From NCBI RefSeq assembly GCF_033170155.1, contig NZ_CP137079.1:496001-560000 (forward strand): a DNA stretch of 64,000 bases. Reading direction: 5' to 3'. The DNA comes from Raineyella sp. W15-4 (GTDB lineage: Bacteria > Actinomycetota > Actinomycetes > Propionibacteriales > Propionibacteriaceae). The notes beneath the pieces are model-generated. The model ran no database searches and had not been told where the DNA came from. It worked only from the letters and a program-made list of their open reading frames with translations. The translations under genes and the position numbers were made by a program. Of the stretch, positions 38,763 through 64,000 are shown in pieces (the first letter of the stretch is position 1; each line of letters opens with the position of its first letter).

Positions 38763-39342
38763 CGGAAGCCGGCGATCCTCACGGAGGCATTCCGATGGTG
38801 GATGACATCGAACTCGGAGCCAGCGCCGAGATAGGCGAGGCCGCGGTCGTGGGCGGAGCCGGACTCATCGCGAGCTGGCATCGATGGAGGCGCCGCGAGG
38901 GACCCACCAGCACCATCACTGGGGGCGGGGCCATCACTCACCTCGAAAACCAATTTGGCCAACTCATGGGCCGCCGGCCCTGTCTGGCCGTCTCCTCTCG
39001 GATCAGGCCGGCCCCCTACACACCGTTATTCCGACAGTCCCGACACTGGCGCGGCAGCGGGGTGAGTCCGGAATGGCTCGAGGTTCTTGGACTGGTGCAT
39101 CTCGATTCGACCCAAGTTGTCGGCGGCGGTTGAAGACTGGTCGGTAACGGCGCGGTGGTTTCCACCGGTGGTCGCAACGTGAAGCGCCTGTAAGTGTCTG
39201 TGGTGGCTGGCCTGGTGCTGGCGGGCAGGGTCGGTGCCGTGTACTCGGCGACGGGTCCACCGGGCTGGTGCTCGCGCGGTCCCGGGCGCCGTGTCCGCGC
39301 GTTCAAGCTGTAGTGGCCGAGCGGACCAGTAGGGTGGAGCGT
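38763..39342. other. No confident gene
   Basis: This 580-base stretch holds one short plus-strand frame (ATG 38795 to 39133, 112 codons) with a GGAGG-like site upstream. Its composition is not protein-like after residue 50, and I do not support it as a gene. No tRNA, terminator or insertion-sequence end is visible. Confidence 0.4.
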
Positions 39343-39954
39343 ATGGGAATGGTGCCCATGACAGGGGAAGCTCTTCACGATCTTGGCCGTGAGGGAGCGC
39401 GGCGAGCGAAGCACTGGCTGGAGTCAACGTCGCGCGTAGACGCATGCTGGGTAAACCCGGACAAGGGGGCCGCGCAGAAGCTTACGTTCGGCTGGCCGGA
39501 AGGTGGCCACTCGTTCTCGTTCGACTTGGGCGGCAAGCTACGCTATGGCGACTTCGATGGCCAGCTGTTCTACGCTGAAGTGAAGAAGTACTCGGCTGTC
39601 GGCGACCTGAACGCCCACTACAAGGCCTTCCTGGCGAAGTGCTACGTCGCCTACTTGAAGGTGCCCAACTTCGCCGACCACTTCATGTGGGTGTCGTGGA
39701 CGCCGCATGGCACTTCCCGTTGGGCGACACTGACCAGCACCGCCGAGGTGCGGGCTGCCGTGATAGAGCACGCCGACCGTATCTTCCCCGCCGGGACCGA
39801 CCCTGTCACGTCCGTCGACGAAGACGCATGCAAGGCGGTTTCGGACAGGTTATGGCTCCTGATCCTCAGCAACAAGCAGGAGTCCCTCGTACCATTCGTC
39901 GAACACCTCGAACTCATCCACTCGCACGAGTTGAGGAAGGCGATGACACCGTGA
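39343..39954 (+). CDS. PD-(D/E)XK-like nuclease-fold protein
   Basis: The 203-residue protein starts at ATG 39343 (GGTGGAG upstream). After an N-terminal helix (EALHDLGREGARRAKHWLES), the segment KLRYGDFDGQLFYAEVKKYS places Asp and E-V-K as in the PD-(D/E)XK catalytic core. AHYKAFLAKCYVAY follows as the usual helix. It resembles restriction-type nuclease domains rather than known housekeeping nucleases. Its stop overlaps the next gene by 4 bases (GTGA), so the two form an operon and probably one system. The fold call rests on motif spacing only. Confidence 0.65.
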   Translation: MGMVPMTGEALHDLGREGARRAKHWLESTSRVDACWVNPDKGAAQKLTFGWPEGGHSFSFDLGGKLRYGDFDGQLFYAEVKKYSAVGDLNAHYKAFLAKCYVAYLKVPNFADHFMWVSWTPHGTSRWATLTSTAEVRAAVIEHADRIFPAGTDPVTSVDEDACKAVSDRLWLLILSNKQESLVPFVEHLELIHSHELRKAMTP

Positions 39955-41414
39955 AGACTCTCGAACAGCGAGTCGAAGACGCCCTGCTCGACCGGGATCC
40001 GCGTGAGTCCGAGTTCCGGGTGAAAGAGACGGTCGCAGACGCCCTGTCAACGTTCGACCCCTCCGCCACTGTGAAAGTAACGAGCTACTTCAACCACACA
40101 TTTGCGCCGGACATCGTCTTGTCATGGGGCAAGGCGGAGCGACCTGTCTTCCTGCGGTTCACCGACAACCTGCCAGAACTAGGCGAGGACATCGAGTTGT
40201 TGGACCGGAAGGATCCGCTCATGTTCGGCCTGTCCACCCCTCCGATCGAAGGGGTACAGGAGAACCGATTGGATGAACGGACTCGGGCCGCTGACATTCT
40301 CCTGACTACCCCTGCGGCAGTGGACGAACTGTCCGCGCGGGTGACGCCGGCAGCCACAGACCGGATGCTCCGAAACTCCCTAGCGCATGGTGGACGTGGC
40401 GCGCTCGTAGGCAAGGCCGAAGCGAACCGGCTCGCAGACAGCTTCGATACCGGATTCACGGCGGCTTCTCGCGGGCAGGTGGAGGCGACACGGCTGGCAC
40501 TGACAGCCATCGGCGACCACTTCGCCGGTGGGCAGGCCCGCCGGTTGAACCGGGTCGTGCAGGCCGTCTGGGAAGGTGGCGGCTCGGGCATTGACCAGTA
40601 TCCCGGCGACCCAGACTTGGCCGCCGAGGTAAGCAACCTGTCGCTGATCTACCTACTCCAGTACATGGATACCGCCAATCCTGCGTTCTGGCGCGGCGTC
40701 GGACGCGCTCTCACCCTCGACCAACTTGTCGCCCTCGCACACGCGGACGCCGCAGGACTCAACAACTTCCAGCACCTAGTGAACGCCAATCTGGACGTTC
40801 TCCGCGCCCGCGCGTGCTTGGTCCTCGATATGAGCATGTACGACAACGAGGAGCCCCTCGACCTCAGCTGGGCCGTCGACCTGCCCGTCCGTGACGCACC
40901 GCCCGCCCTTACCCTGCGAGGGCCGGGTTTCCATGCGTTCGTGACCCGCAAGAAGGAAGACTTAAAGCCGCGACTCTCGCCCTCCGCAGGCGGCCTGTCG
41001 GTGACCGAGTTCCTGGATCGGACGGCAACCGCGCACGTCGCGGCTGTCAACGCCAGCGTCGGCGACAGGCACATCAGTCTCAGTGACGACAGCGGAACCA
41101 CGGACACGGACTTTGTGCAGGCCGCCACCAGCGGGCTTCCCGACGCCCAAGTCGACCGCGCCACGGTTTCCACACCTAGCGGACGCATCACGGTCGACTT
41201 CGCCCAACGGACCGGGACCGGCGTCACACGCAGCGACACCCTGGTCGTAGACCTACTCCTCGCCACCACCAGCCTGCTCGTTGACTTCACGGCCGAACAG
41301 CGCGAAGCGCTTACCGCGTTCCTCACCATTACCACGCGGGCACCCGCAACAACCCCGGAGACGCTCAACTTCAACGAGAACGACGCTGACCACGCAAGTC
41401 CGGCAAGGGAGTAG
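39951..41414 (+). CDS. Unrecognised 487-residue partner of the nuclease-like protein
   Basis: GTG 39951 overlaps the stop of the nuclease-like gene. An N-terminal part (LEQRVEDALLDRDPRESEFR; FNHTFAPDIVLSW) also has a PD-(D/E)XK-like feel (E..., PDIVL, then a VFLRF strand) without a clear lysine. A helical middle (GQVEATRLALTAIGDHFAGG; YLLQYMDTANPAFWRGVGRA) and a beta-rich C-terminus (DRATVSTPSGRITVDFAQRT) follow. No ATPase or membrane motif is present. I do not recognise the family. The pair is flanked by a gene-poor spacer on the left and a converging ATPase gene on the right. Confidence 0.65.
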   Translation: MKTLEQRVEDALLDRDPRESEFRVKETVADALSTFDPSATVKVTSYFNHTFAPDIVLSWGKAERPVFLRFTDNLPELGEDIELLDRKDPLMFGLSTPPIEGVQENRLDERTRAADILLTTPAAVDELSARVTPAATDRMLRNSLAHGGRGALVGKAEANRLADSFDTGFTAASRGQVEATRLALTAIGDHFAGGQARRLNRVVQAVWEGGGSGIDQYPGDPDLAAEVSNLSLIYLLQYMDTANPAFWRGVGRALTLDQLVALAHADAAGLNNFQHLVNANLDVLRARACLVLDMSMYDNEEPLDLSWAVDLPVRDAPPALTLRGPGFHAFVTRKKEDLKPRLSPSAGGLSVTEFLDRTATAHVAAVNASVGDRHISLSDDSGTTDTDFVQAATSGLPDAQVDRATVSTPSGRITVDFAQRTGTGVTRSDTLVVDLLLATTSLLVDFTAEQREALTAFLTITTRAPATTPETLNFNENDADHASPARE

Positions 41415-41540: not shown

Positions 41541-44051
41541 CTACGCAGATGAACGGCCGCTGTCGAGTGCGCCGGGGAGTAGTTTCTTCGTAGTTCCGCG
41601 GGACTCGAGTGGCAGCTCTCGAACGGAGCCCAGATCAGCTTCATCTATTGCCTCAAGAAGCTTCGCGCTGTCCAGCTTAAGCGCCTCACACATTGCGTCA
41701 AAATGTTCAGGGTCGATCCTGTTGATTAGGCCATAGACGGACCTTACGATCACGGACGCTTCCCCCCTGCGGAAGCCCCTGTTCGTATCGACATACTCAT
41801 TATGGGAGTACTGATGGAGGTACCAGACCATGCGTGTACGGCTAGCCCCATTGTCCAACTGATCGATCGCAAGTTTCATCTGATCTCTAAAGTTGCCCAT
41901 CTCCTGAGGATATCGATAGCTAAAGAAGCCTTCCAAAAGGCGACGGCAAACGTTTGGGGCGATCGCAGCTAGGTCTGCCTCATCCTCAGGACGGATAGGG
42001 CCCACTTGGCTGGAAGTCAGAATGTCCGCTGCCTTCCAAAAGAGGTAGTGGTACTCTGACCGTAGCTTTGTGCGTACGGTCTTGTTGCCCATGGAGGCGT
42101 CCCACTCTATCCATTTGGGGCGTCGCGAAAGCGCTCCTTCTGGCGTTGAGTGTGCTTGGGCGCGCAACTCCAATATACGGTAAGTCATACCATGATTGGG
42201 ATTGCCGTGGTACGAACTCGGGAGCCGATCCAGTTGATTAGTCCAGAGGCGGAAGAGTTCGAAACTGTGGGTGAATAGAAAGACTTGACCGCAGGCCCGT
42301 CGCCAGTTCTTCGCCTCTGAGCACGTGCATGGGCGCTCTTCGCCGCAACCACATACCTCCGGCTGAATAAGCTCCGCCCAGAGAAGACTCGAGATGCCGA
42401 CCGTTAGCCCGTCATCGAGACTTGAGACTGGGTCGTCGATGACAATAGTGAGGTTGCTTCGTTCTTTTCCTCCGTTTGTGAGAGATTTGAGGAAGTAGAG
42501 AAGCGAGATGGCTGTCTTTTCACCTTCGCTCAGATTTGTGGCAGGTTCGCCGTGACGTAGCAATGCGTACAGGTTCGAGTTCGTCGGGCGAACCTCGAGT
42601 TCTGTTCGTCCAAGTAGACGGTGTAGGCGGTCGGTAAGCCAACTCGCGGGCGGCCCTGGATCGAGCTCCTCATGCTCCAATTCTGCAATCTTCCCGCGCA
42701 TGGCTTCGACTTGCCGTTGAAGCCCGCTGACCGCCTTGGCGCTTTCCTCGGCCACCTTCGTTGCCTCAAACAGCTCTTGGGCCGACTCGCCGATGAGATA
42801 CGCCTCTACCAGATCAGCGGCCATTAGGCGCTGCCCGGCTAGATCCTCTGTGACCAGATTGTGTTTCTTCAGTATCTCTAGGATGCAGGTAGGTGATGGC
42901 GGGACTATTAGAGGGGCTTGAAGCTGCGGTGGATCGACTTCCTCAAATACGTTCTTCGACTTTCGATCCAACGAGAGGGCGACAGTGGCGAGGGCGGATG
43001 ACGTCTGTCTTGCGACCTCGGCATAGGAAGCCAAGGCAGCCGTGTAGTCTTCTCTTAGGTGGTTATAGATCAATTCTGGATCCGGCCAAGATGACATATT
43101 CGCGCATGCCTGTTGGGCCTGGGAGACTCCGCTTTGGAGGTCCTTAATGTCGCTTTCGAGTCTGCGGGTGCTTTCATCGAAGTGGCGCTGAAGTTTCGAA
43201 AGGCGCTCGGCCGTAAGAGGCGCAAGACAGAATTGGCAATTCTGTTGCCCTTCATGGAGCGACATGCCCCGACTTACCCACTGTGCGAGCTCGGGGTTTT
43301 GAGTAAGATGTGGAATGGGGGAGGCTGTTGGGACTCGATGCAAGACCTCCGCTACAAGCTCTAGGTTAATAGCTGGCCAGACGAGACTTGCACCTGACTC
43401 TGGACGCAAAGGCTTAGGGGACGATTGAACGATCTGAGTGTTCGCCTCTAGGTTGAATGCGTGCCGATCACTCTTCGACATTGCCTTGGTCAAGTTCTTC
43501 TGAACCCGAGTGGCATTATAGGAGCGCGCTTCGTAGCCTTTTACGGTTGAAAGTCGTGCCGTCACCTGTTGGCCGATACGCTTCTTGATCTTATCTGGCT
43601 CCTTCGAGTCCTTGACAGCTTTCCACTGACCCTCAGGGAGCAATTTACCAGTCAGTTCTTGGAGGCGGATTCGGTATTCTTTCAGCTTCCTTTCTCGATC
43701 CACATCCTTCTTTCCGAGGGCCATTAGGGCTACCGCTTCGCCGGAGTCGAAATCGATCACCTCACGCACATAACGACGATTAAAGAGGGCCACATTCCCG
43801 AAGAATGGATCTTTGGAGTCGCTCAGCAACCGCGCCTGACCGTCTTGCACCTCCTTCAGTGTGAAAGAGACCCCAGAGGCCCAAGCGCTTTCCGAATAGG
43901 CCGGAGCGAATAGCTCACAGAGAGTGGACTTGCCGGACCCGTTGTCGGCGTAAATCAGGTTGATGTCACGAAATCCTTCAAAGTCCTCCCCAGGCTTCCA
44001 GTTTGAGAAGATCCGGTGATTCTTGATGGATGTTATGTTCTTGACTAGCAC
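41541..44051 (-). CDS. RloC-like AAA ATPase with zinc-hook motif
   Basis: The 836-residue ABC/AAA_13-type ATPase resembles RloC/PrrC anticodon-nuclease ATPases. Walker A YADNGSGKST is at residues 34-43. A coiled-coil region is interrupted by CQFC (Cys272, Cys275), matching a Rad50/RloC zinc hook. The signature LSEGEKTAISLL is near 513 and Walker B LTIVIDDPVSSLDD near 540. An unusual CGCGEERPCTC cluster at 567-577 may bind metal. The C-terminal 150 residues (RRLLEGFFSYRYPQEMGNF; WYLHQYSHNEYVDT) would hold any nuclease site, which I cannot confirm. The start GTG 44051 has a weak site. GC content is clearly lower than the chromosome. It lies next to a broken type I restriction locus. Confidence 0.8.
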   Translation of the reverse strand: MLVKNITSIKNHRIFSNWKPGEDFEGFRDINLIYADNGSGKSTLCELFAPAYSESAWASGVSFTLKEVQDGQARLLSDSKDPFFGNVALFNRRYVREVIDFDSGEAVALMALGKKDVDRERKLKEYRIRLQELTGKLLPEGQWKAVKDSKEPDKIKKRIGQQVTARLSTVKGYEARSYNATRVQKNLTKAMSKSDRHAFNLEANTQIVQSSPKPLRPESGASLVWPAINLELVAEVLHRVPTASPIPHLTQNPELAQWVSRGMSLHEGQQNCQFCLAPLTAERLSKLQRHFDESTRRLESDIKDLQSGVSQAQQACANMSSWPDPELIYNHLREDYTAALASYAEVARQTSSALATVALSLDRKSKNVFEEVDPPQLQAPLIVPPSPTCILEILKKHNLVTEDLAGQRLMAADLVEAYLIGESAQELFEATKVAEESAKAVSGLQRQVEAMRGKIAELEHEELDPGPPASWLTDRLHRLLGRTELEVRPTNSNLYALLRHGEPATNLSEGEKTAISLLYFLKSLTNGGKERSNLTIVIDDPVSSLDDGLTVGISSLLWAELIQPEVCGCGEERPCTCSEAKNWRRACGQVFLFTHSFELFRLWTNQLDRLPSSYHGNPNHGMTYRILELRAQAHSTPEGALSRRPKWIEWDASMGNKTVRTKLRSEYHYLFWKAADILTSSQVGPIRPEDEADLAAIAPNVCRRLLEGFFSYRYPQEMGNFRDQMKLAIDQLDNGASRTRMVWYLHQYSHNEYVDTNRGFRRGEASVIVRSVYGLINRIDPEHFDAMCEALKLDSAKLLEAIDEADLGSVRELPLESRGTTKKLLPGALDSGRSSA

Positions 44052-44181
44052 TCTTTATCACCAATCACAAATCATCATTTTTGACCCCTGAAAGCCCAAA
44101 GAACCGCTCAAAGAAGGAACCCAGCTTCGCCAACACCCGCTGCTTCTTCTCCGCGTGGCCGCCCTGGGACGAGAAGCGTCG

Positions 44182-45773
44182 CTATGGCGGGAGCACCTTG
44201 GTGATCGCTGTCCCCGTGACCTGGATAGCGCCATCGCGGAAGGCCATCTCGATGAAGGCTCGGGGCGCGTCCGGCCGAAGGCCCTCGGACTCGATGATCG
44301 TGTCCAGCTCAGCCTCACGACGGACAGCGATGAAGGCTCGCCACTCCTCGTCGATCTCGCCGCTCGCGGATACGGAGTCGATGAGGGCTTCGATGAGGTC
44401 CTTCTTGTTGCGCAGGCTCGGGCTGGCGTCGACGGCCCGGCTATCTCGGCGCGGATCTCCTTATCTTGGCCGTTGCCTCGCTCATCGCGGTACTTCTGGA
44501 CGAGCATGAGGATGTAGTCGACGTTGATCTCGACCTGCTTTATAAGCTCGATCTCGAAGACGTCGTCGTCGTTGATCGACTCCTTATCCGCATCGGTCTC
44601 GCTGCGGAACTCCGCGTACAGGTCGAGGTAGCGGCTGCGGTCGTCCTGGGCCTGTCGCTCGGTCAGGATCTCGTCGCCGGCGAAGTCGTCGAACGAGGTC
44701 AGGATGTTCTGCAGCCGCAGGATGGCCCCGAACAGGACGATGAACGCCTTCTTTGCCTCCTCCCCGACGATCGGGGCTCCAACCGGGCAGGTGTCGAGCA
44801 GCTCGGCGACCCTGTCGGCGTACTCGCTGTAGTACTCGCCGCACGGCTTGAGCAGCACGATGCCACCGGCATCCTTGTTCCCGAACAGCGCGATGGCATC
44901 GTTCGTCTCGTCCTCGAGGTCACGGAACGACACGATGTTGCCGTACGTCTTGACTGAGTTGAGGATGCGGTTGGTGCGTGAGTACGCCTGGATCAGCCCG
45001 TGGGCGCGCAGGTTCTTTTCGGCGAAGAGCGTGTTCAGGGTGGTGGCGTCGAAGCCGGCCAGGAACATGTTGACGACGATGACCAGGTCGACCTCGCGCT
45101 GCTTGAGCCGCAGCGACAGATCCTTGTAGTAGTTCTGCAGTTCGGAGACCTCCTGGGGCGTGTACTCACCACCGGACTTGCCGGCGGCAGAGGCATACAT
45201 CCGCATGAGGTACTCGTAGGATTCGCCGAAGGTGTCTATGGTGTGGTCGGAGAAGTTGCCCAGGTCGAGGTCGCCGACGGCGTCGAGGAGTTTGACGAGC
45301 TTCTCGTTGCGCTTGGCGATTGTGGCGTCGAGCTTGGCGGACTTGACGTCGAGGTCGTCGAACAGGCCCTTCAGATCATCTTCGGAGTCGGTGCCGAAGG
45401 CGGATCGCTCGATGTTGTTGAAGAACCGCTCAAGCCTTTCGTTGAGGTCCTCGTCACGCGGGGCACGCTCGCGTATATTGACGAACAGCTCCGAGGGCAG
45501 GATGTAGAAGCCCTTCTCCGCCACGGTGTCCTTGCGGCCGTACTCCGCATCCGAGTCGCCGAGACCGGCGTAGTCGAAGTCAGTGTCACCGGCTTCGCGC
45601 TCGCTCTTGTTGAGGTATGCGGTCAGGTTCTCAGAGATGAACCGGTAGAACAGCATGCCCAGCACGTAGCTCTTGAAGTCCCAGCCGTCGACGCTGCCTC
45701 GTAGGTCGTTCGCGATCCGCCAGATCGTCTTGTGGAGCTCGGCGCGCTGTGCTTCCTTGGTCGCTCCAGCCAT
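44182..45773 (-). pseudogene. hsdM-hsdR fusion remnant of a type I restriction-modification system
   Basis: From ATG 45773 the frame encodes the HsdM N-terminus ([40 protein letters not shown]) up to [12 protein letters not shown]. There, near 45135, it joins in frame to the HsdR helicase C-terminus ([40 protein letters not shown]). HsdM's methylase domain, hsdS and the HsdR nuclease and front helicase parts are missing. Near 44440 a frameshift moves the HsdR tail ([18 protein letters not shown]) to another frame, where it ends at the TAG at 44182. The unshifted frame runs on to 44058. Restriction and modification activity must be lost. Confidence 0.88.
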
Positions 45774-46051
45774 CTCCGTTCGTCTACTCCTTCGCACCAA
45801 GAGTTGCCCACCGAGTGCCCCGGCATCGATTCCATGGGCGACGATTCTCAACGTATCAGCGGCTACTAACCGAGCGCGCGCAAGCTGATCGGTGTGCCCG
45901 TCACAGGGTTTCAGGGGGAGGCCTGATGTCACGCCCACCGTGGACAGTCCCCTAACCGTGACGTACGCCCCCGGGGACGAAGGAAGGGTGCTCAGGCACC
46001 TCCGCGCGCTCTGTCATCGATTGGCACCGTCAGAAATCGATGACGACAGGT

Positions 46052-46270
46052 CTAGGCGTCTTGTAGCAGCTCTCTCGGATCCACTCCCAGCTCCTCCGCC
46101 AACCGCTCCAAGCTCTGCAAGGTGAGGTTCCGTTCACCTCGCTCCAGGCCGCCCATGTAGGTGCGGTGGACGCCGAGTTGGTCGGCGAAGGCCTCTTGGC
46201 TCAGTCCGCGGGCTTGCCGGTAGGAACGTAGGTTTTGCCCCACGATCCTCTGCAAGTCCCCGACGGTCAC
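46052..46270 (-). CDS. XRE-family regulator, left copy
   Basis: The 72-residue Cro/C1-type helix-turn-helix (GLSQEAFADQLGVHRTYMGG, LERGERNLTLQSLERLAEEL) starts at GTG 46270. All but the last few codons lie in the left arm of a perfect 249-bp inverted repeat. It is therefore identical to the right copy (48201-48416) up to GVDP, after which it ends RELLQDA. Such small XRE proteins are often controllers of restriction-modification or TA loci and bind just upstream of their own gene; the AGTCTACAGACT site at 46301-46312 is a candidate. Confidence 0.9.
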   Translation of the reverse strand: MTVGDLQRIVGQNLRSYRQARGLSQEAFADQLGVHRTYMGGLERGERNLTLQSLERLAEELGVDPRELLQDA

Positions 46271-46324
46271 GCCTTCGAGCGTTCCGGTCCGCTACTTGAG
46301 AGTCTACAGACTTATAAGTAGCAT
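46076..46324 (+). repeat. Left arm of a perfect 249-bp inverted repeat
   Basis: This 249-base stretch is the exact reverse complement of 48147-48395 at every position I compared. It holds most of an XRE gene, its start and the promoter/operator region (CTACTT...AAGTAG around AGTCTACAGACT). The arms enclose about 1.8 kb. Confidence 0.92.
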
Positions 46325-46394
46325 CAGGTTGTCAGAGTCACCTGATGGGGGAGGGCACGATGAGCGGCGGAGAGTAAGAACGACCAAAGGTCTA

Positions 46395-47588
46395 TCAGGC
46401 TGCCTCGCGGCGTTCAGCGTCGCGGGGCAGTTCCGTCTCCAGCGTCCAGGTGAAGGCGAAGCCGGATTTCGGCATGAGCCAGCCGGGTACCTCGACGGAG
46501 ATGACCTTCCCCGGAACGGCGGCCGGTGTCCGGGTTACGCGCGCCGAGCGGGCGGTCGCGACGGTGTCGCTCACCCGGATCTGTGCGATGGCGGTGTCGG
46601 TGTAGTCGAGACTGAGCGACAGGTTCTTGCCTGGTTGGGGTAGCTCGAAGAACAGCCGGTGTCCCCACGTGGGCGTAACGGTACGGAAGACCTGCCGGAT
46701 GCGGACCGGGTGTCCGGACATGGCGTTGGCGTCCAGTCGGACGGAGTAAGTCTGGCCGGTCTTGCGTGATGTGCGGCGAATCGTTTGCGGCACGCCGTCG
46801 ACGCTCAGATCGAGCAGCTCGTAGAAGTCCCGGCTGCTGGCGTCCATGCCCGGCCGGGGTGTCATCAGCCAAACCGAGGTCGCCGGGACGTCTTCGCGAA
46901 GCTCGTCATACTCCGCCCGATCAGCGACACAGGCGAAGCGGCGGGTCGGCGCGCTCGGGATCGTGGTGTATTCCCATTCCACAGTAACGTCAAACAGAGG
47001 AGCACCTTCGGTGCTCCTCTCTACTGCAGTAGAGAGCCGAACTTTTACGTCGACGTCGTGCCAGCGCTCGGCGGCGCGGATCGCTTGGTCACGGATGTCG
47101 GCATAGAGCTCGCGGGCGAACTGCTCGTCGCCAAGGCGCAGGCTCATGACGTTGGCGGCGATGTCGTCGAGCAGCTCCGGGTTGGCGACGCGGCGCAGGT
47201 CCTCTGGGTGGATGGCGAAGCCCTCGACGACCGCATCCCGCATGGTCGGCGCCTGCTCCTTGATGATGTCGCGAAACTGCGCGACAGTCTCCTCCTCTTG
47301 ATCGCGCCGGAAGCTGTACTCGAAGAGGGTGCCGAGCAGTCCCGCGCCGAAGAGTGTGCCGCCCAGTTCGCCAAGCGGGAGGGCGTGCAGCCAGCCCCAG
47401 GCGCCAAGATTGAGCGTACTCAGCCAGGCGTTGGCCATGATGAACAAGATACCGGCGAGCGTCAGACCGACCGCCAGCAAGGCCGCTTTTGCTTTGCGGA
47501 GTCTACGTAAGGGAGATGATCGATGTTTGTGGGCCATGTTACTGTCGCTATTGTACGAGAATAGCGACAGAACCTCAATGCCGCTCAC
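46395..47588 (-). CDS. Membrane protein with coiled-coil and beta-rich cytoplasmic domain
   Basis: Two membrane segments lie near the N-terminus (ALLAVGLTLAGILFIMANAW; LGGTLFGAGLLGTLFEYSF). A charged helical part (DQEEETVAQFRDIIKEQAPT) and a C-terminal domain of about 200 residues rich in beta strands follow (RIRQVFRTVTPTWGHRLFFE). GTG 47588 overlaps the GNAT stop (GTGA), giving 397 residues. ATG 47537 is an alternative with 380 residues that would start after a hairpin. I do not recognise the family; two-helix anchors with a sensor-like domain are common in membrane-acting effectors of defence loci. Confidence 0.75.
   Translation of the reverse strand: MSGIEVLSLFSYNSDSNMAHKHRSSPLRRLRKAKAALLAVGLTLAGILFIMANAWLSTLNLGAWGWLHALPLGELGGTLFGAGLLGTLFEYSFRRDQEEETVAQFRDIIKEQAPTMRDAVVEGFAIHPEDLRRVANPELLDDIAANVMSLRLGDEQFARELYADIRDQAIRAAERWHDVDVKVRLSTAVERSTEGAPLFDVTVEWEYTTIPSAPTRRFACVADRAEYDELREDVPATSVWLMTPRPGMDASSRDFYELLDLSVDGVPQTIRRTSRKTGQTYSVRLDANAMSGHPVRIRQVFRTVTPTWGHRLFFELPQPGKNLSLSLDYTDTAIAQIRVSDTVATARSARVTRTPAAVPGKVISVEVPGWLMPKSGFAFTWTLETELPRDAERREAA
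47542..47570. promoter_or_regulatory. Hairpin at the start of the membrane protein gene
   Basis: CTGTCGCTATT and AATAGCGACAG form a perfect 11-bp stem with a 7-base loop between the GNAT stop and ATG 47537. It could control translation of the membrane protein or fix the choice between the two starts. Confidence 0.5.
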
Positions 47589-48094
47589 GTATTTTCGGTC
47601 AATAATCCAAGAATGTGGACGTCGCAGCGCTTCCCGTTAAAGAAATAGCGCTCACGAAGGATTCCCTCGTTGACGAAGCCAAGCCGGGTGAACAGGCGGA
47701 GCGAGGCGAGGTTGTCCGCGTTGACCCAGGCTTCGAGGCGACGCAGCCCGAGGTATCCGGTGGCCCAGTCGATGACGGCCTGGGTAGCGGTGACCCCGTA
47801 GCCCCGCCGACGATGGGCTGGGTTCCAGACGCAGACGCCGACGTGGGCGACACGGTTGCGCCAGTCGATGGCATGCACGGAACACTCGGCGACTAGATCC
47901 TCACCGTCGCGAAGGACGAAGGTGTAGTCGCTCGAAGGCTGTGGTCCGGCCGTGAGATTGATCCTCCGCCGTAGTTCGGCCGCGCTACGCGGCCGCCAGT
48001 ACGGCGCCCCGTATTGGGCCAGTTCCTCCCAGTCCCAGCAGGCGTTCAAGATCTCCGGAATGTGTGCCTCGCTCAGCGCCTCGATCGTCGGCAT
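47585..48094 (-). CDS. GNAT acetyltransferase, RimJ/RimL-like
   Basis: The 169-residue protein has the acetyl-CoA loop NPAHRRRGYGVTATQAVIDW and the RimL-type tail WVNADNLASLRLFTRLGFVN, EGILRERYFFNGKRCDVHIL. The start ATG 48094 is preceded by a G-rich stretch. It is transcribed divergently from the right XRE copy, so its promoter lies in the repeat arm. It is translationally coupled to the membrane protein gene. Its target is unknown; GNATs in such settings can be TA toxins acting on aminoacyl-tRNA or housekeeping modifiers. Confidence 0.88.
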   Translation of the reverse strand: MPTIEALSEAHIPEILNACWDWEELAQYGAPYWRPRSAAELRRRINLTAGPQPSSDYTFVLRDGEDLVAECSVHAIDWRNRVAHVGVCVWNPAHRRRGYGVTATQAVIDWATGYLGLRRLEAWVNADNLASLRLFTRLGFVNEGILRERYFFNGKRCDVHILGLLTENT

Positions 48095-48146
48095 CGGCGT
48101 CCCCCCGCCTTCATCGCGCGTCCGGCCAGGACCGGATCCTTCGGGC

Positions 48147-48395
48147 ATGCTACTTATAAGTCTGTAGACTCTCAAGTAGCGGACCGGAACGCTCGAAGGC
48201 GTGACCGTCGGGGACTTGCAGAGGATCGTGGGGCAAAACCTACGTTCCTACCGGCAAGCCCGCGGACTGAGCCAAGAGGCCTTCGCCGACCAACTCGGCG
48301 TCCACCGCACCTACATGGGCGGCCTGGAGCGAGGTGAACGGAACCTCACCTTGCAGAGCTTGGAGCGGTTGGCGGAGGAGCTGGGAGTGGATCCG
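48147..48395 (-). repeat. Right arm of a perfect 249-bp inverted repeat
   Basis: This is the exact reverse complement of 46076-46324. It contains the start and most of the right XRE gene and the shared divergent promoter/operator (AGTCTGTAGACT at 48159-48170). Confidence 0.92.
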
Positions 48396-48416
48396 GTGAG
48401 ACTGCTGCAGGATTAA
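48201..48416 (+). CDS. XRE-family regulator, right copy
   Basis: The 71-residue protein starts at GTG 48201. It is identical to the left copy except at the C-terminus, where the reading leaves the repeat after GVDP and ends VRLLQD. It is divergent from the GNAT/membrane-protein operon and probably represses both directions from the palindromic site between them. Confidence 0.9.
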   Translation: MTVGDLQRIVGQNLRSYRQARGLSQEAFADQLGVHRTYMGGLERGERNLTLQSLERLAEELGVDPVRLLQD

Positions 48417-50346: not shown

Positions 50347-51186
50347 TTGACTGAGCAACTGGAGCTGGCCCTCGCGGCGTTCGAGACCCTTAAGACCCCT
50401 TCGCGAGTAGCTGGTGCACTCCGCGAAGGGGGCGCCTCTGCGCTTGAGACGGAGTACGCAGGCCTCCCCTCTGGCACCCGGAACTGCGTGGATCAGAAGG
50501 CTCGTGAGATGCGACGGAACCACATCGACGTCGTCCTGTTCGGGACGAAGGACTTCCCGGGCATCCTGGTTTCGGATCGACGGCCTGTTGCGCCAGTTAT
50601 CCTCTTTCGCGGCGCCAAAGACCTCTTCTACAGGGACGGCATCGGTATTTGCGGATCACGCCACGTCAGTGACCGCGGCCTGGACGCGGCCTCGCGTTAC
50701 GGGAGGTACGCGACGGAGATGGGACTCACCGTCGTCTTGGGCTACGCGGCGGGAGTGGACGCTGCGGCGCTCCGCGCGGGTGGCAGCACCGTCATCGTGC
50801 TTGCCGAAGGCATGGACCACTTCCGCATCAATCGCGCGTTCGCTGGCGACTTCGACTGGGATGGGATCCTTGTCCTCTCACAATTCCCGCCGTCACAGCC
50901 TTGGATGCCACGCGCGGCGATGGCGAGGAACGCGATCATTTTCGGCCTGCCGAAGGCCTTGCTCGTGGTCGAGGCAGGTGAGCGCGGGGGGACCTTGGCT
51001 GCGGGCGAGGGTGCCCTGAAGCTCGGGCGCGCCGTGATAGCGGTCGACTTCGGCGACGAGACACCGCCGGGTAACCGCATACTCATTGAGAAGGGTGCCC
51101 GGCCGGTCAGGACGCCGCCCCAACTGAGGGCGGCCGACGAGGTGCACTCGGCCCCATTCGTCGACGATACGCCCACGCTCTTTTAG
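50347..51186 (+). CDS. DprA/Smf-like SLOG-fold protein
   Basis: The 279-residue protein starts at TTG 50347 after GGAGG/AAGGA sequence. The Rossmann-like core has GIGICGSRHVSDRGLDAASR and LTVVLGYAAGVDAAALRAGG, corresponding to the DprA GSR and GID-AAH motifs. VVEAGERGGTLAAGEGALKL follows, as in DprA. It lacks the C-terminal winged helix of true DprA. It directly follows the phosphoribosyltransferase-like gene. Pairing of SLOG proteins with phosphoribosyltransferases has been noted in nucleotide-based conflict systems, so a defence role is more likely than transformation. Confidence 0.8.
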   Translation: MTEQLELALAAFETLKTPSRVAGALREGGASALETEYAGLPSGTRNCVDQKAREMRRNHIDVVLFGTKDFPGILVSDRRPVAPVILFRGAKDLFYRDGIGICGSRHVSDRGLDAASRYGRYATEMGLTVVLGYAAGVDAAALRAGGSTVIVLAEGMDHFRINRAFAGDFDWDGILVLSQFPPSQPWMPRAAMARNAIIFGLPKALLVVEAGERGGTLAAGEGALKLGRAVIAVDFGDETPPGNRILIEKGARPVRTPPQLRAADEVHSAPFVDDTPTLF

Positions 51187-62397: not shown

Positions 62398-64000
62398 ATG
62401 AGTAGCTACCGACAGAAGAAGCGACCCGCGGCAGAGGATGAGAAGCGCAACTGCGTCCTCTATCTTCGGGTGTCGACCGCCAGCCAGACGTACACCGCAC
62501 GCGACATCAGCAAGGACGGCAACTCGATCGCCGTCCAACGCGAAGAGACGATGGCCAAGGCCAACGAGCTCGGGCTGGTCGTTGCCAAGGAGTTCGTCGA
62601 ACCGGGCCGCAGCGCCCAGACGATGGAGAAGCGCCCGGTCTTCCGCCAGATGTTGGCCTACGTCTCCGAGCATCCCGAGGTCGGCGCGATCATCGTTTAC
62701 AGCCGCTCACGTGCTTTCCGCAACGTCGAGGACGCCATGCTCACCCGGCGCAACCTGCGCATGCTCGGCGTCAAGCTCATCTCCACCAAGGAGGACTTCG
62801 GCGACAGCTTCGAAGGCGACGCCATGGCCACCATCACCGATGCGATGAACGAGCTGCAGTACCGCCTCAATGGCCAGGACGTGAAGCTCAAGATGGCACA
62901 CAAGGCAAAGAACGGCGGCACCATCACCCGCGCCCCGATCGGCTACCTCAACACCCGCATCACCATCGACGGCCACCTGGTCAACAGCATCGGTATAGAC
63001 AACGAACGAGCGCCGCTAGTCAGGCTCATGTTCGAGCTCTACGCCACGGGGGAGTACACCATCCCGCAGCTCACCGAGGCCATGCAGGATCAAGGACTCG
63101 AAGCACGGCCCACCGGCCGGCACCTCGCCCCACGTCCGATCACCCGCGACACCGTCGAGCGCGTCCTGGGCGATCCCTACTACGCCGGGTGGATCTACTA
63201 CGACGACCAGCTCTACGAAGGCCGCCATGAAGCCCTCGTCGACCAAGAGCTCTTCGACCGTGTCCAGGACGTCCTCGACGCCCGGTCGGGGATCGGCATG
63301 CATATGCAGGTCCATCACCACTACCTCAAGGGCATCCTGTGGTGTGACCGCTGCCATGAAGCCGGACGAGAGAACAGGCTCATCTACATGGAAGCCAAAG
63401 GCGGCCAGTATGCCTACTTCTTCTGCGTGGGACGCTACCAACACGTCTGCGACTTGCCCTTCCTCCGGGTGGAGGCCGTCGAAGACGCCATCGAGCGTCA
63501 CTACACCACGCTCCCTCTGCCAGCTCGCTACGGCGATAACCTCCGTGCCGCTCTCGAAGAGGCCATGGATGCCCAACAGCACATCCAGCACGATTTGGTC
63601 ACCAACCTGACCCGGGAGTTGGCGAACCTAGACGAGCAGGCCGATCGGCTGCTCCACGCCCTTATGAACGGCCTGTCCGCCGAGGACAAGGTGCAACGGC
63701 TGCTGAACGACATCCAGCTCAAACGCCGCAGTATCGAAGGCCGGATCGCTCGAACCGAAGATCACCTCACCGAAGGACTGGAACTCACCAAGACCTGGAT
63801 CACACTGGCTGAGCATCCACAAGACTTCTACGGGCAAGCAGCCCCCGATGTACGGCCCCAGCTCAACCGCGGCTTCTTCCATCGCCTGCGACTCGACCTC
63901 GACGACAGCGGCCGTGTCCAGGTCGAGCATGAGCTTCGCGAGCCGGTTGCCAGTCTCTACCGAACGGCCAATGAATTGTCCGAAGGGGATCGCTCGCGCC
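62398..64000 (+). CDS. Large serine recombinase, 3' end outside the window
   Basis: At least 534 residues are encoded and no stop occurs before the window ends. The resolvase domain begins NCVLYLRVSTASQTYTARD with the catalytic Ser26. SRSRAFRNVEDAMLTRRNLR contains the conserved arginines. A recombinase domain (GYLNTRITIDGHLVNSI; ITRDTVERVLGDPYYAGWIY) and a zinc ribbon (ILWCDRCHEAG ... FFCVGRYQHVCD) follow. A coiled coil comes next (LVTNLTRELANLDEQADRLL). This is the usual integrase type for excision and integration of actinobacterial mobile elements. ATG 62398 has an AAAAGGAGA site. Confidence 0.95.
   Translation, partial: MSSYRQKKRPAAEDEKRNCVLYLRVSTASQTYTARDISKDGNSIAVQREETMAKANELGLVVAKEFVEPGRSAQTMEKRPVFRQMLAYVSEHPEVGAIIVYSRSRAFRNVEDAMLTRRNLRMLGVKLISTKEDFGDSFEGDAMATITDAMNELQYRLNGQDVKLKMAHKAKNGGTITRAPIGYLNTRITIDGHLVNSIGIDNERAPLVRLMFELYATGEYTIPQLTEAMQDQGLEARPTGRHLAPRPITRDTVERVLGDPYYAGWIYYDDQLYEGRHEALVDQELFDRVQDVLDARSGIGMHMQVHHHYLKGILWCDRCHEAGRENRLIYMEAKGGQYAYFFCVGRYQHVCDLPFLRVEAVEDAIERHYTTLPLPARYGDNLRAALEEAMDAQQHIQHDLVTNLTRELANLDEQADRLLHALMNGLSAEDKVQRLLNDIQLKRRSIEGRIARTEDHLTEGLELTKTWITLAEHPQDFYGQAAPDVRPQLNRGFFHRLRLDLDDSGRVQVEHELREPVASLYRTANELSEGDRSR

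What the first reader, a model, noticed from the sequence alone, without database searches (positions are those of the whole stretch)
46076..48395. Perfect 249-bp inverted repeat carrying two XRE genes around a two-gene cargo
The arms 46076-46324 and 48147-48395 are exact reverse complements. Each contains the promoter/operator (AGTCT-N2-AGACT) and nearly all of an XRE regulator; the two proteins differ only in their last residues. Between them lie a GNAT gene and a membrane protein gene, driven from the right arm. Identity without a single change implies recent duplication, or continued homogenisation by recombination, which would also invert the cargo while always leaving one arm to drive it.
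Basis: seen in the sequence. Interest (0 to 1): 0.75.

Follow-up and report, generated by a model that had tools for sequence, protein, structure and literature searches.

The report
Twin-controlled GNAT and membrane-protein cassette
A gene cassette found in scattered actinobacteria here carries two mirror-image copies of its own small switch protein, and gene conversion appears to have kept the copies identical; the cargo they flank is not the usual restriction-modification system but an acetyltransferase and an undescribed membrane protein of unknown purpose.

Summary
In detail: 46076-46324 and 48147-48395 are exact reverse complements, each holding an operator and most of a 71-72 aa XRE gene. 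The XRE is a restriction-modification controller (C) protein by homology (C.AhdI, C.BclI); its C-box operator core occurs only at these two places in the 3.96-Mb genome. The cargo is a GNAT and a 380-aa putative membrane protein without Pfam, NCBIfam or PADLOC match. Nine relatives in Gordonia, Mycobacterium, Actinomyces, Tsukamurella and Brevibacterium show a recurrent GNAT + membrane-protein + C-protein cassette, mostly with one C gene. Intact or decayed operators lie at both cargo ends in 7 of 10 loci. Beyond the arms the two C genes differ abruptly, partly at synonymous sites, and a similar abrupt boundary occurs in Actinomyces glycerinitolerans (256-bp pair, 96.9%). That favours gene conversion between older copies over fresh duplication. 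Inversion of the cargo is possible but not shown, and should be nearly neutral for expression because both arms present the same operator side inwards. The membrane gene probably has its own promoter. Cargo function (defence or addiction) is inferred, not shown.

The parts
46076..46324 (-). left arm, 249 bp: operator plus codons 1-65 of XRE-L
   Evidence: exact reverse complement of 48147-48395
48147..48395 (+). right arm, 249 bp: operator plus codons 1-65 of XRE-R
46052..46270 (-). XRE-L, 72 aa C-protein-like regulator, downstream of the membrane gene and on the same strand
   Evidence: PADLOC Control_protein 9.3e-21; Pfam HTH_3 7.1e-16
48201..48416 (+). XRE-R, 71 aa C-protein-like regulator, divergent from the GNAT
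   Evidence: PDB phmmer: C.AhdI 2e-12, C.BclI 1.8e-10
46291..46325 (-). left C-box operator GATGCTACTTATAAGTCTGTAGACTCTCAAGTAGC
   Evidence: matrix scans; its 19-bp core occurs only twice in the genome with up to 3 mismatches
48146..48180 (+). right C-box operator; its back side faces the GNAT
47585..48094 (-). GNAT acetyltransferase, 169 aa
   Evidence: Pfam Acetyltransf_3 1.7e-19; nearest solved relatives by sequence are diamine and spermidine N-acetyltransferases
46395..47537 (-). putative membrane protein, 380 aa: hydrophobic helices about 9-40 and 55-79, then a helical and a beta-rich domain; uncharacterised family
   Evidence: no hit in Pfam, PADLOC or NCBIfam; 28 relatives; AlphaFold mean pLDDT 77.6; membrane location is read from the sequence, no topology program was run
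47550..47555 (-). -10-like element TACAAT, 12 nt before the membrane gene's ATG
46360..46377 (+). micro-ORF MSGGE* with a strong ribosome-site-like sequence, on the back side of the left operator
   Evidence: similar micro-ORF at this place in 11 of 29 loci, against 38 of 8,700 random segments

Best explanation
This is a cassette, apparently spread horizontally among actinobacteria, in which a C-protein-type XRE regulator sits with cargo that is not a restriction-modification system: a GNAT and a putative two-helix membrane protein. A C-box operator lies at each end of the cargo, in inverted orientation, so one regulator could bind both: one next to the GNAT promoter, one after the membrane gene. 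Here a C gene is retained at both ends. The two C genes are older copies, and gene conversion has overwritten operator plus DNA-binding domain, keeping both regulators specific for both operators. Shown by sequence: the architecture, the C-protein homology, the operators found nowhere else in the genome, and the abrupt end of identity in two lineages. Inferred: gene conversion itself, DNA binding and autoregulation, delayed expression after transfer to a new host, and a defence or addiction role in which the membrane protein is the effector and the GNAT its partner.
For: Arms identical over 249 bp, with 9 differences in the next 18 coding bases; 3 of the 5 differing codons there are synonymous. 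The right tail matches the left at 4 of 6 residues; 57 of 200,000 random in-frame pieces do as well. A second case in L077: no difference in CDS bases 0-170 and 8 in 170-207, the first five differing codons all synonymous. Copies within each pair are 94% identical over the whole CDS and at most 75% to the other 12 XRE genes compared, the other double locus included. A C-protein-like XRE lies within 1.5 kb of the membrane gene in 21 of 28 relatives. Operators or decayed operators lie at both cargo ends in 7 of 10 GNAT-bearing loci, by a matrix from 7 sites outside this set. With XRE operators elsewhere in the locus kept out of the control, all 12 end scores of the 6 non-window loci exceed every one of 1,000 random segments per locus, L074 narrowly (14.7 against 13.4). 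The operator core occurs exactly twice in this genome and 8 times in all in 6 other genomes, all 8 in the cassettes by coordinates.
Against: The window tail is only 18 bases long, and the cut at base 170 in L077 was chosen after seeing the data. The L077 arms are not identical: there is also one difference inside the operator. L077's left copy sits next to a DUF6907 gene, not after the membrane gene, so it is not the same left end. Three of the 10 GNAT-bearing loci (L075, L078, L083) have a different XRE class and no matching operator at either end. Of the 9 GNAT-bearing relatives, 6 have one XRE in the stretch held; L083 has two in tandem, L074 a second about 5 kb away, L077 the inverted pair. 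7 of 28 membrane-gene relatives have no XRE within 1.5 kb at E 1e-6, and 19 of 28 lack a GNAT match. Three of the 28 (L088, L097, L099) were rows of the query alignment. No regulation or function was measured.
Confidence: 0.6

Rival explanations
1. A fresh inverted duplication: one arm was recently copied to the other end and is too young to have diverged.
For: No difference in 249 bp; most GNAT-bearing relatives have one XRE close by.
Against: Reading frame and residues continue beyond the arm on both sides, with synonymous divergence; arm limits coincide with the functional unit, operator to near the stop codon; a similar pattern recurs in L077.
Confidence: 0.22
2. An invertible switch: recombination between the arms flips the cargo and changes expression.
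For: Long inverted repeats can recombine (general knowledge); the membrane gene and GNAT are differently oriented to each other in L076 and L077.
Against: Both arms present the same operator side inwards, so flipping should leave cargo transcription nearly unchanged; the closest resolvase-family match (in a 655-aa open frame) lies about 14 kb away, and none of the 5 tyrosine-recombinase matches of the genome is in the window. Other recombinase families were not searched.
Confidence: 0.06
3. XRE-L is the controller of the neighbouring type I restriction system and only lies beside the cargo by chance.
For: XRE-L is upstream of, and on the same strand as, an HsdM-HsdR fusion ORF; one other hsdM locus, L107, has an XRE upstream.
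Against: Of the 30 hsdM loci examined (of 41 matches, flanks of up to 1.5 kb), 1 of 29 others has it, while 13 of 28 membrane genes have an XRE on the same strand within 240 bp downstream.
Confidence: 0.07
4. Assembly artefact.
For: Perfect inverted repeats can mislead assemblers.
Against: Single-contig genome; the different tails anchor each arm in unique sequence; a similar, not identical, pair exists in another genus.
Confidence: 0.03

Closest known systems
C (controller) proteins of type II R-M systems: C.AhdI, C.BclI, C.Esp1396I
   Same: size, HTH family by homology, a roughly 35-bp pseudo-symmetric double operator before its own gene; C.Esp1396I also acts on separate operators for the C/R and M genes (PMC3758141, abstract to methods read; PMC3115060, passages)
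   Different: the cargo is a GNAT and a putative membrane protein, not endonuclease and methyltransferase; two C genes in inverted orientation with identical arms
RptR, regulator of a defence island around a type I R-M system (PMC12255303, abstract and outline read)
   Same: a small dedicated regulator of a defence island
   Different: by its abstract a repressor with a TAGCTA site in direct repeats; no inverted pair is mentioned there
Inverted-repeat homogenisation by template switching (PMC8604942) and palindrome gene conversion (PMC3723533); start of abstract in a search listing only
   Same: arms kept alike, spacer may invert
   Different: yeast and human examples; here the arms are limited to an operator plus DNA-binding domain

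Membership tests
C-protein (R-M controller) family | small single-domain HTH protein homologous to C.AhdI | tested here: met
   71-72 aa; C.AhdI 2e-12, C.BclI 1.8e-10; PADLOC Control_protein 9.3e-21
C-protein (R-M controller) family | C-box operator just upstream of its own gene | tested here: met
   35-bp operator with central GT in both arms, and similar sites upstream of several close homologues; by sequence only
C-protein (R-M controller) family | controls an adjacent endonuclease and methyltransferase | tested here: not met
   cargo is a GNAT and an unknown protein; the neighbouring type I ORF is a fused remnant, and 1 of 29 other hsdM loci examined has an XRE
C-protein (R-M controller) family | binds the operator and autoregulates | not testable with these tools
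   needs gel-shift and reporter assays
Inverted-repeat transposon | transposase between the repeats and a target-site duplication outside | tested here: not met
   neither cargo protein has a transposase match in Pfam; flanks outside the arms do not match as direct repeats (by eye)
Site-specific inversion switch | invertase gene close by | tested here: not met
   nearest resolvase-family match at genome position 558455, about 14 kb from the right arm; no PF00589 match in the window
Type II toxin-antitoxin | known toxin family next to an XRE antitoxin | tested here: not met
   membrane protein has no NCBIfam, Pfam or PADLOC match; XRE hits the Y4mF antitoxin model only below cut-off, 42.6 of 71.65 bits

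The most novel reading that the evidence does not exclude
A new kind of selfish or defence module that has taken over the R-M controller circuit: the C protein delays a membrane effector (guarded by a GNAT) on entry into a new host, with inverted operators at both ends serving also as recombination anchors by which the regulator gene moves between ends and is kept uniform by gene conversion; a conserved micro-ORF M(x)GG(G)D/E read off the back of the operator would be part of the circuit.
Probability: 0.3. Interest if true: 0.82.

Novelty: new variant of a known kind. Interest (0 to 1): 0.62.

Why it matters
C proteins are known from restriction-modification systems, where they can delay a toxic nuclease. 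Finding what looks like the same circuit on unrelated cargo suggests that this GNAT and membrane protein also need delayed or balanced expression, a testable pointer to a toxic effector. The double locus also offers a natural case in which regulator and operator appear to be maintained together by gene conversion.

Tried and rejected

Led nowhere: membrane protein in plasmid and phage records (no match); PDB by profile (no match at E up to 1); Foldseek against the PDB: the 50 rows listed, of 670 matches, are mostly M1-aminopeptidase-like and ribophorin-like beta domains at E 1.4e-5 to 3.4e-4, but with TM-scores of 0.13-0.31, so only a hint; a dyad between GNAT and membrane gene in the window (47542-47570) was not found in the 12 other loci compared; GNAT matches in 146 related genomes reach at most 43% identity among those listed, own copy aside. 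One viral contig carries the membrane gene at its end; the sequence after the gene is that of Gordonia L075 by eye, and no XRE was found in the 5 kb held. In 396 genomes of the phylum 2 had the membrane protein at 1e-30, own included; the other, L134, has a divergent XRE upstream. XRE homologues in plasmids and phages are all under 60% identical (34 and 8 records); their neighbourhoods were not read.

Limits: the first control could sample the XRE operator in L076 and L077; one search repeats it with those kept out. In one search some membrane-gene ends were approximate (L099 was missed there but seen), so 11 of 29 is a lower bound. One search used 20 of 29 loci; some start codons there are uncertain. 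Gene neighbourhoods use a simple ORF caller, and part of the output was cut. L079 is a MAG labelled Saccharibacteria whose cassette resembles Actinomyces L080, so a binning error is possible. Neighbours scanned were 10 hand-picked proteins: 3 gave clear defence-type matches, the rest weak or none. Literature: searches showed no description of this cassette in the listings of the held open-access library; subscription papers, including the 2009 C-box survey cited in the papers read, were not seen.

Full report
Observation. The two 249-bp arms are exact reverse complements, and no other copy exists in the 3,962,933-base single-contig genome. Each runs from the start of a 35-bp operator to codon 65 of an XRE gene. 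The genes point outwards; XRE-L ends RELLQDA, XRE-R ends VRLLQD. Between the arms, both on the minus strand, lie a GNAT (47585-48094) and a 380-aa putative membrane protein (46395-47537).

What the regulator is. The XRE matches the R-M controller proteins C.AhdI (2e-12) and C.BclI (1.8e-10) in the PDB and PADLOC Control_protein (9.3e-21). The operator GATGCTACTTATAAGTCTGTAGACTCTCAAGTAGC resembles the roughly 35-bp two-operator C-protein sites with a central GT described in PMC3115060 (passages) and PMC3758141 (abstract to methods). Similar sites precede several close XRE homologues in other genomes. Its 19-bp core occurs only at the two arms in this genome, allowing 3 mismatches. An 18-bp pattern with up to 2 mismatches finds 8 sites in 6 other genomes, all of which I placed inside cassettes by comparing coordinates. 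So this looks like a dedicated local regulator.

What the cargo is. The GNAT is of the Acetyltransf_3 kind, nearest to spermidine and diamine acetyltransferases among solved structures. The membrane protein has no Pfam, NCBIfam or PADLOC match. AlphaFold on 29 sequences (mean pLDDT 77.6, pTM 0.62) gives long helices at 9-40 and 55-79, low confidence at about 75-117, and a mostly confident beta-rich domain from about 159. That the first helices span a membrane is read from the sequence. Foldseek finds only weak likeness to M1-aminopeptidase and ribophorin beta domains.

The cassette elsewhere. A pattern scan of the 84,980-species collection found 28 relatives of the membrane protein (three were rows of the query alignment), in Mycobacterium, Gordonia, Actinomyces, Tsukamurella, Brevibacterium, Nocardioides, Kribbella and others. 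A C-protein-like XRE lies within 1.5 kb in 21 of 28: 15 downstream on the same strand, 13 of these within 240 bp as XRE-L is, with other genes between in L076 and L077; and 6 upstream on the opposite strand, as XRE-R is. L091, L092 and L098 have only weaker matches. The GNAT is within 2.5 kb in 9 of 28. Of these nine, six have one XRE in the stretch held, L077 an inverted pair, L083 a tandem pair, L074 a second about 5 kb off. Among related genomes the family is rare: 6 of 146 at E up to 0.001, of which 4 (own included) are strong, and 2 of 396 in the phylum at 1e-30, own included. Patchy presence in distant genera suggests horizontal transfer; mobility was not tested.

Two ends, two operators. 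In the 10 loci with GNAT and membrane gene (window, L074-L078, L082-L085) I scored the stretch upstream of the GNAT, reading away from it, and downstream of the membrane gene. The matrix was made from 7 operator sites in loci outside this set. In 7 of 10 an operator or a decayed operator lies at both ends: both intact in the window and L085, one intact and one decayed in L074, L077, L082 and L084, both decayed in L076, whose intact operator lies elsewhere in the locus. With XRE operators elsewhere left out of the control, all 12 end scores in the 6 non-window loci exceed 1,000 of 1,000 random segments; the weakest are L074 (14.7 against a maximum of 13.4) and L076 (13.7 against 11.7). L075, L078 and L083 do not score; they have another XRE class. 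This fits an ancestral cassette with an operator at each end and one C gene usually lost, though other histories are possible.

Homogenisation. In the window, identity is complete through codon 65; then 9 of 18 bases differ, with three synonymous codon changes. A random in-frame piece fits the left tail as well as the right tail does in 57 of 200,000 trials, so the tails are probably homologous and older than the arms' identity. In Actinomyces glycerinitolerans (L077) a second inverted XRE pair, 256 bp at 96.9%, flanks a DUF6907 gene, a coiled-coil-like ORF, the membrane gene and the GNAT. There, CDS bases 0-170 have no difference and eight fall in bases 170-207 (cut chosen after inspection), the first five changed codons being synonymous; one further difference lies in the operator. 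Whole-CDS identity within each pair is 94%, and at most 75% to the other 12 genes compared. I read both as gene conversion between older inverted copies. The L077 left copy is in a different context, so the two cases are probably independent.

Expression. The GNAT start is about 50 bases from the back of the right operator. An extended -10 within 35 nt of the membrane-gene start is found in 14 of 20 loci tested, against 73 of 10,000 random segments and 16 of 269 other ORF upstreams. The window has TACAAT without the TG and is among the 6 misses. Flipping 46325-48146 would set the same operator side beside the GNAT, so I expect little effect on expression.

Function. C proteins can delay the endonuclease when an R-M system enters a new host (review PMC3874152, passages). 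By analogy, the membrane protein may be the harmful effector and the GNAT its partner. Surroundings would fit a defence island: a fused HsdM-HsdR remnant and an AAA_13 protein matching candidate defence family PDC-S06 in the window, and, among 10 hand-picked neighbours elsewhere, Fic, Old-like and RhuM proteins in 3. This is inference only.

Verdict. Observation confirmed; homogenisation favoured; inversion possible but not shown. The cassette appears to use a C-protein circuit but is not an R-M system. No description was seen in the listings of searches of the held open-access library.

Noticed in passing
46360-46377 (+); L074, L076, L077, L079-L082, L084, L085, L097 downstream of the membrane gene: Recurrent micro-ORF, ribosome-site-like sequence plus M(x)GG(G)D/E/S and stop, read off the back of the operator side; 11 of 29 loci against 38 of 8,700 random segments. 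Longer forms between XRE and GNAT in L075 and L078.
   Followed up: partly
44061-45776 (-): ORF fusing an HsdM N-terminal part to an HsdR C-terminal part: a collapsed type I restriction system.
   Followed up: partly
41541-44051 (-): AAA_13 protein matching candidate defence family PDC-S06 (4e-117).
   Followed up: no
39268-41414 (+): Two genes that look similar, by eye, to two neighbours of the Brevibacterium cassette (L085 8235-10278); no alignment was run.
   Followed up: no
50347-51186 (+): DprA-like protein matching PADLOC PsyrA and ShosA (6.2e-37, 2.7e-26).
   Followed up: no
62455-62919 (+): Resolvase-family match within a 655-aa open frame, possibly a large serine integrase.
   Followed up: no
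47542-47570: Perfect 11-bp dyad with 7-nt loop around the membrane gene's -10-like element; not found in the 12 other loci compared.
   Followed up: partly
L077 4754-5077, L076 7256-7642, L085 7471-7860: DUF6907 genes near three of these cassettes (the L085 one is exactly at the Pfam cut-off).
   Followed up: partly
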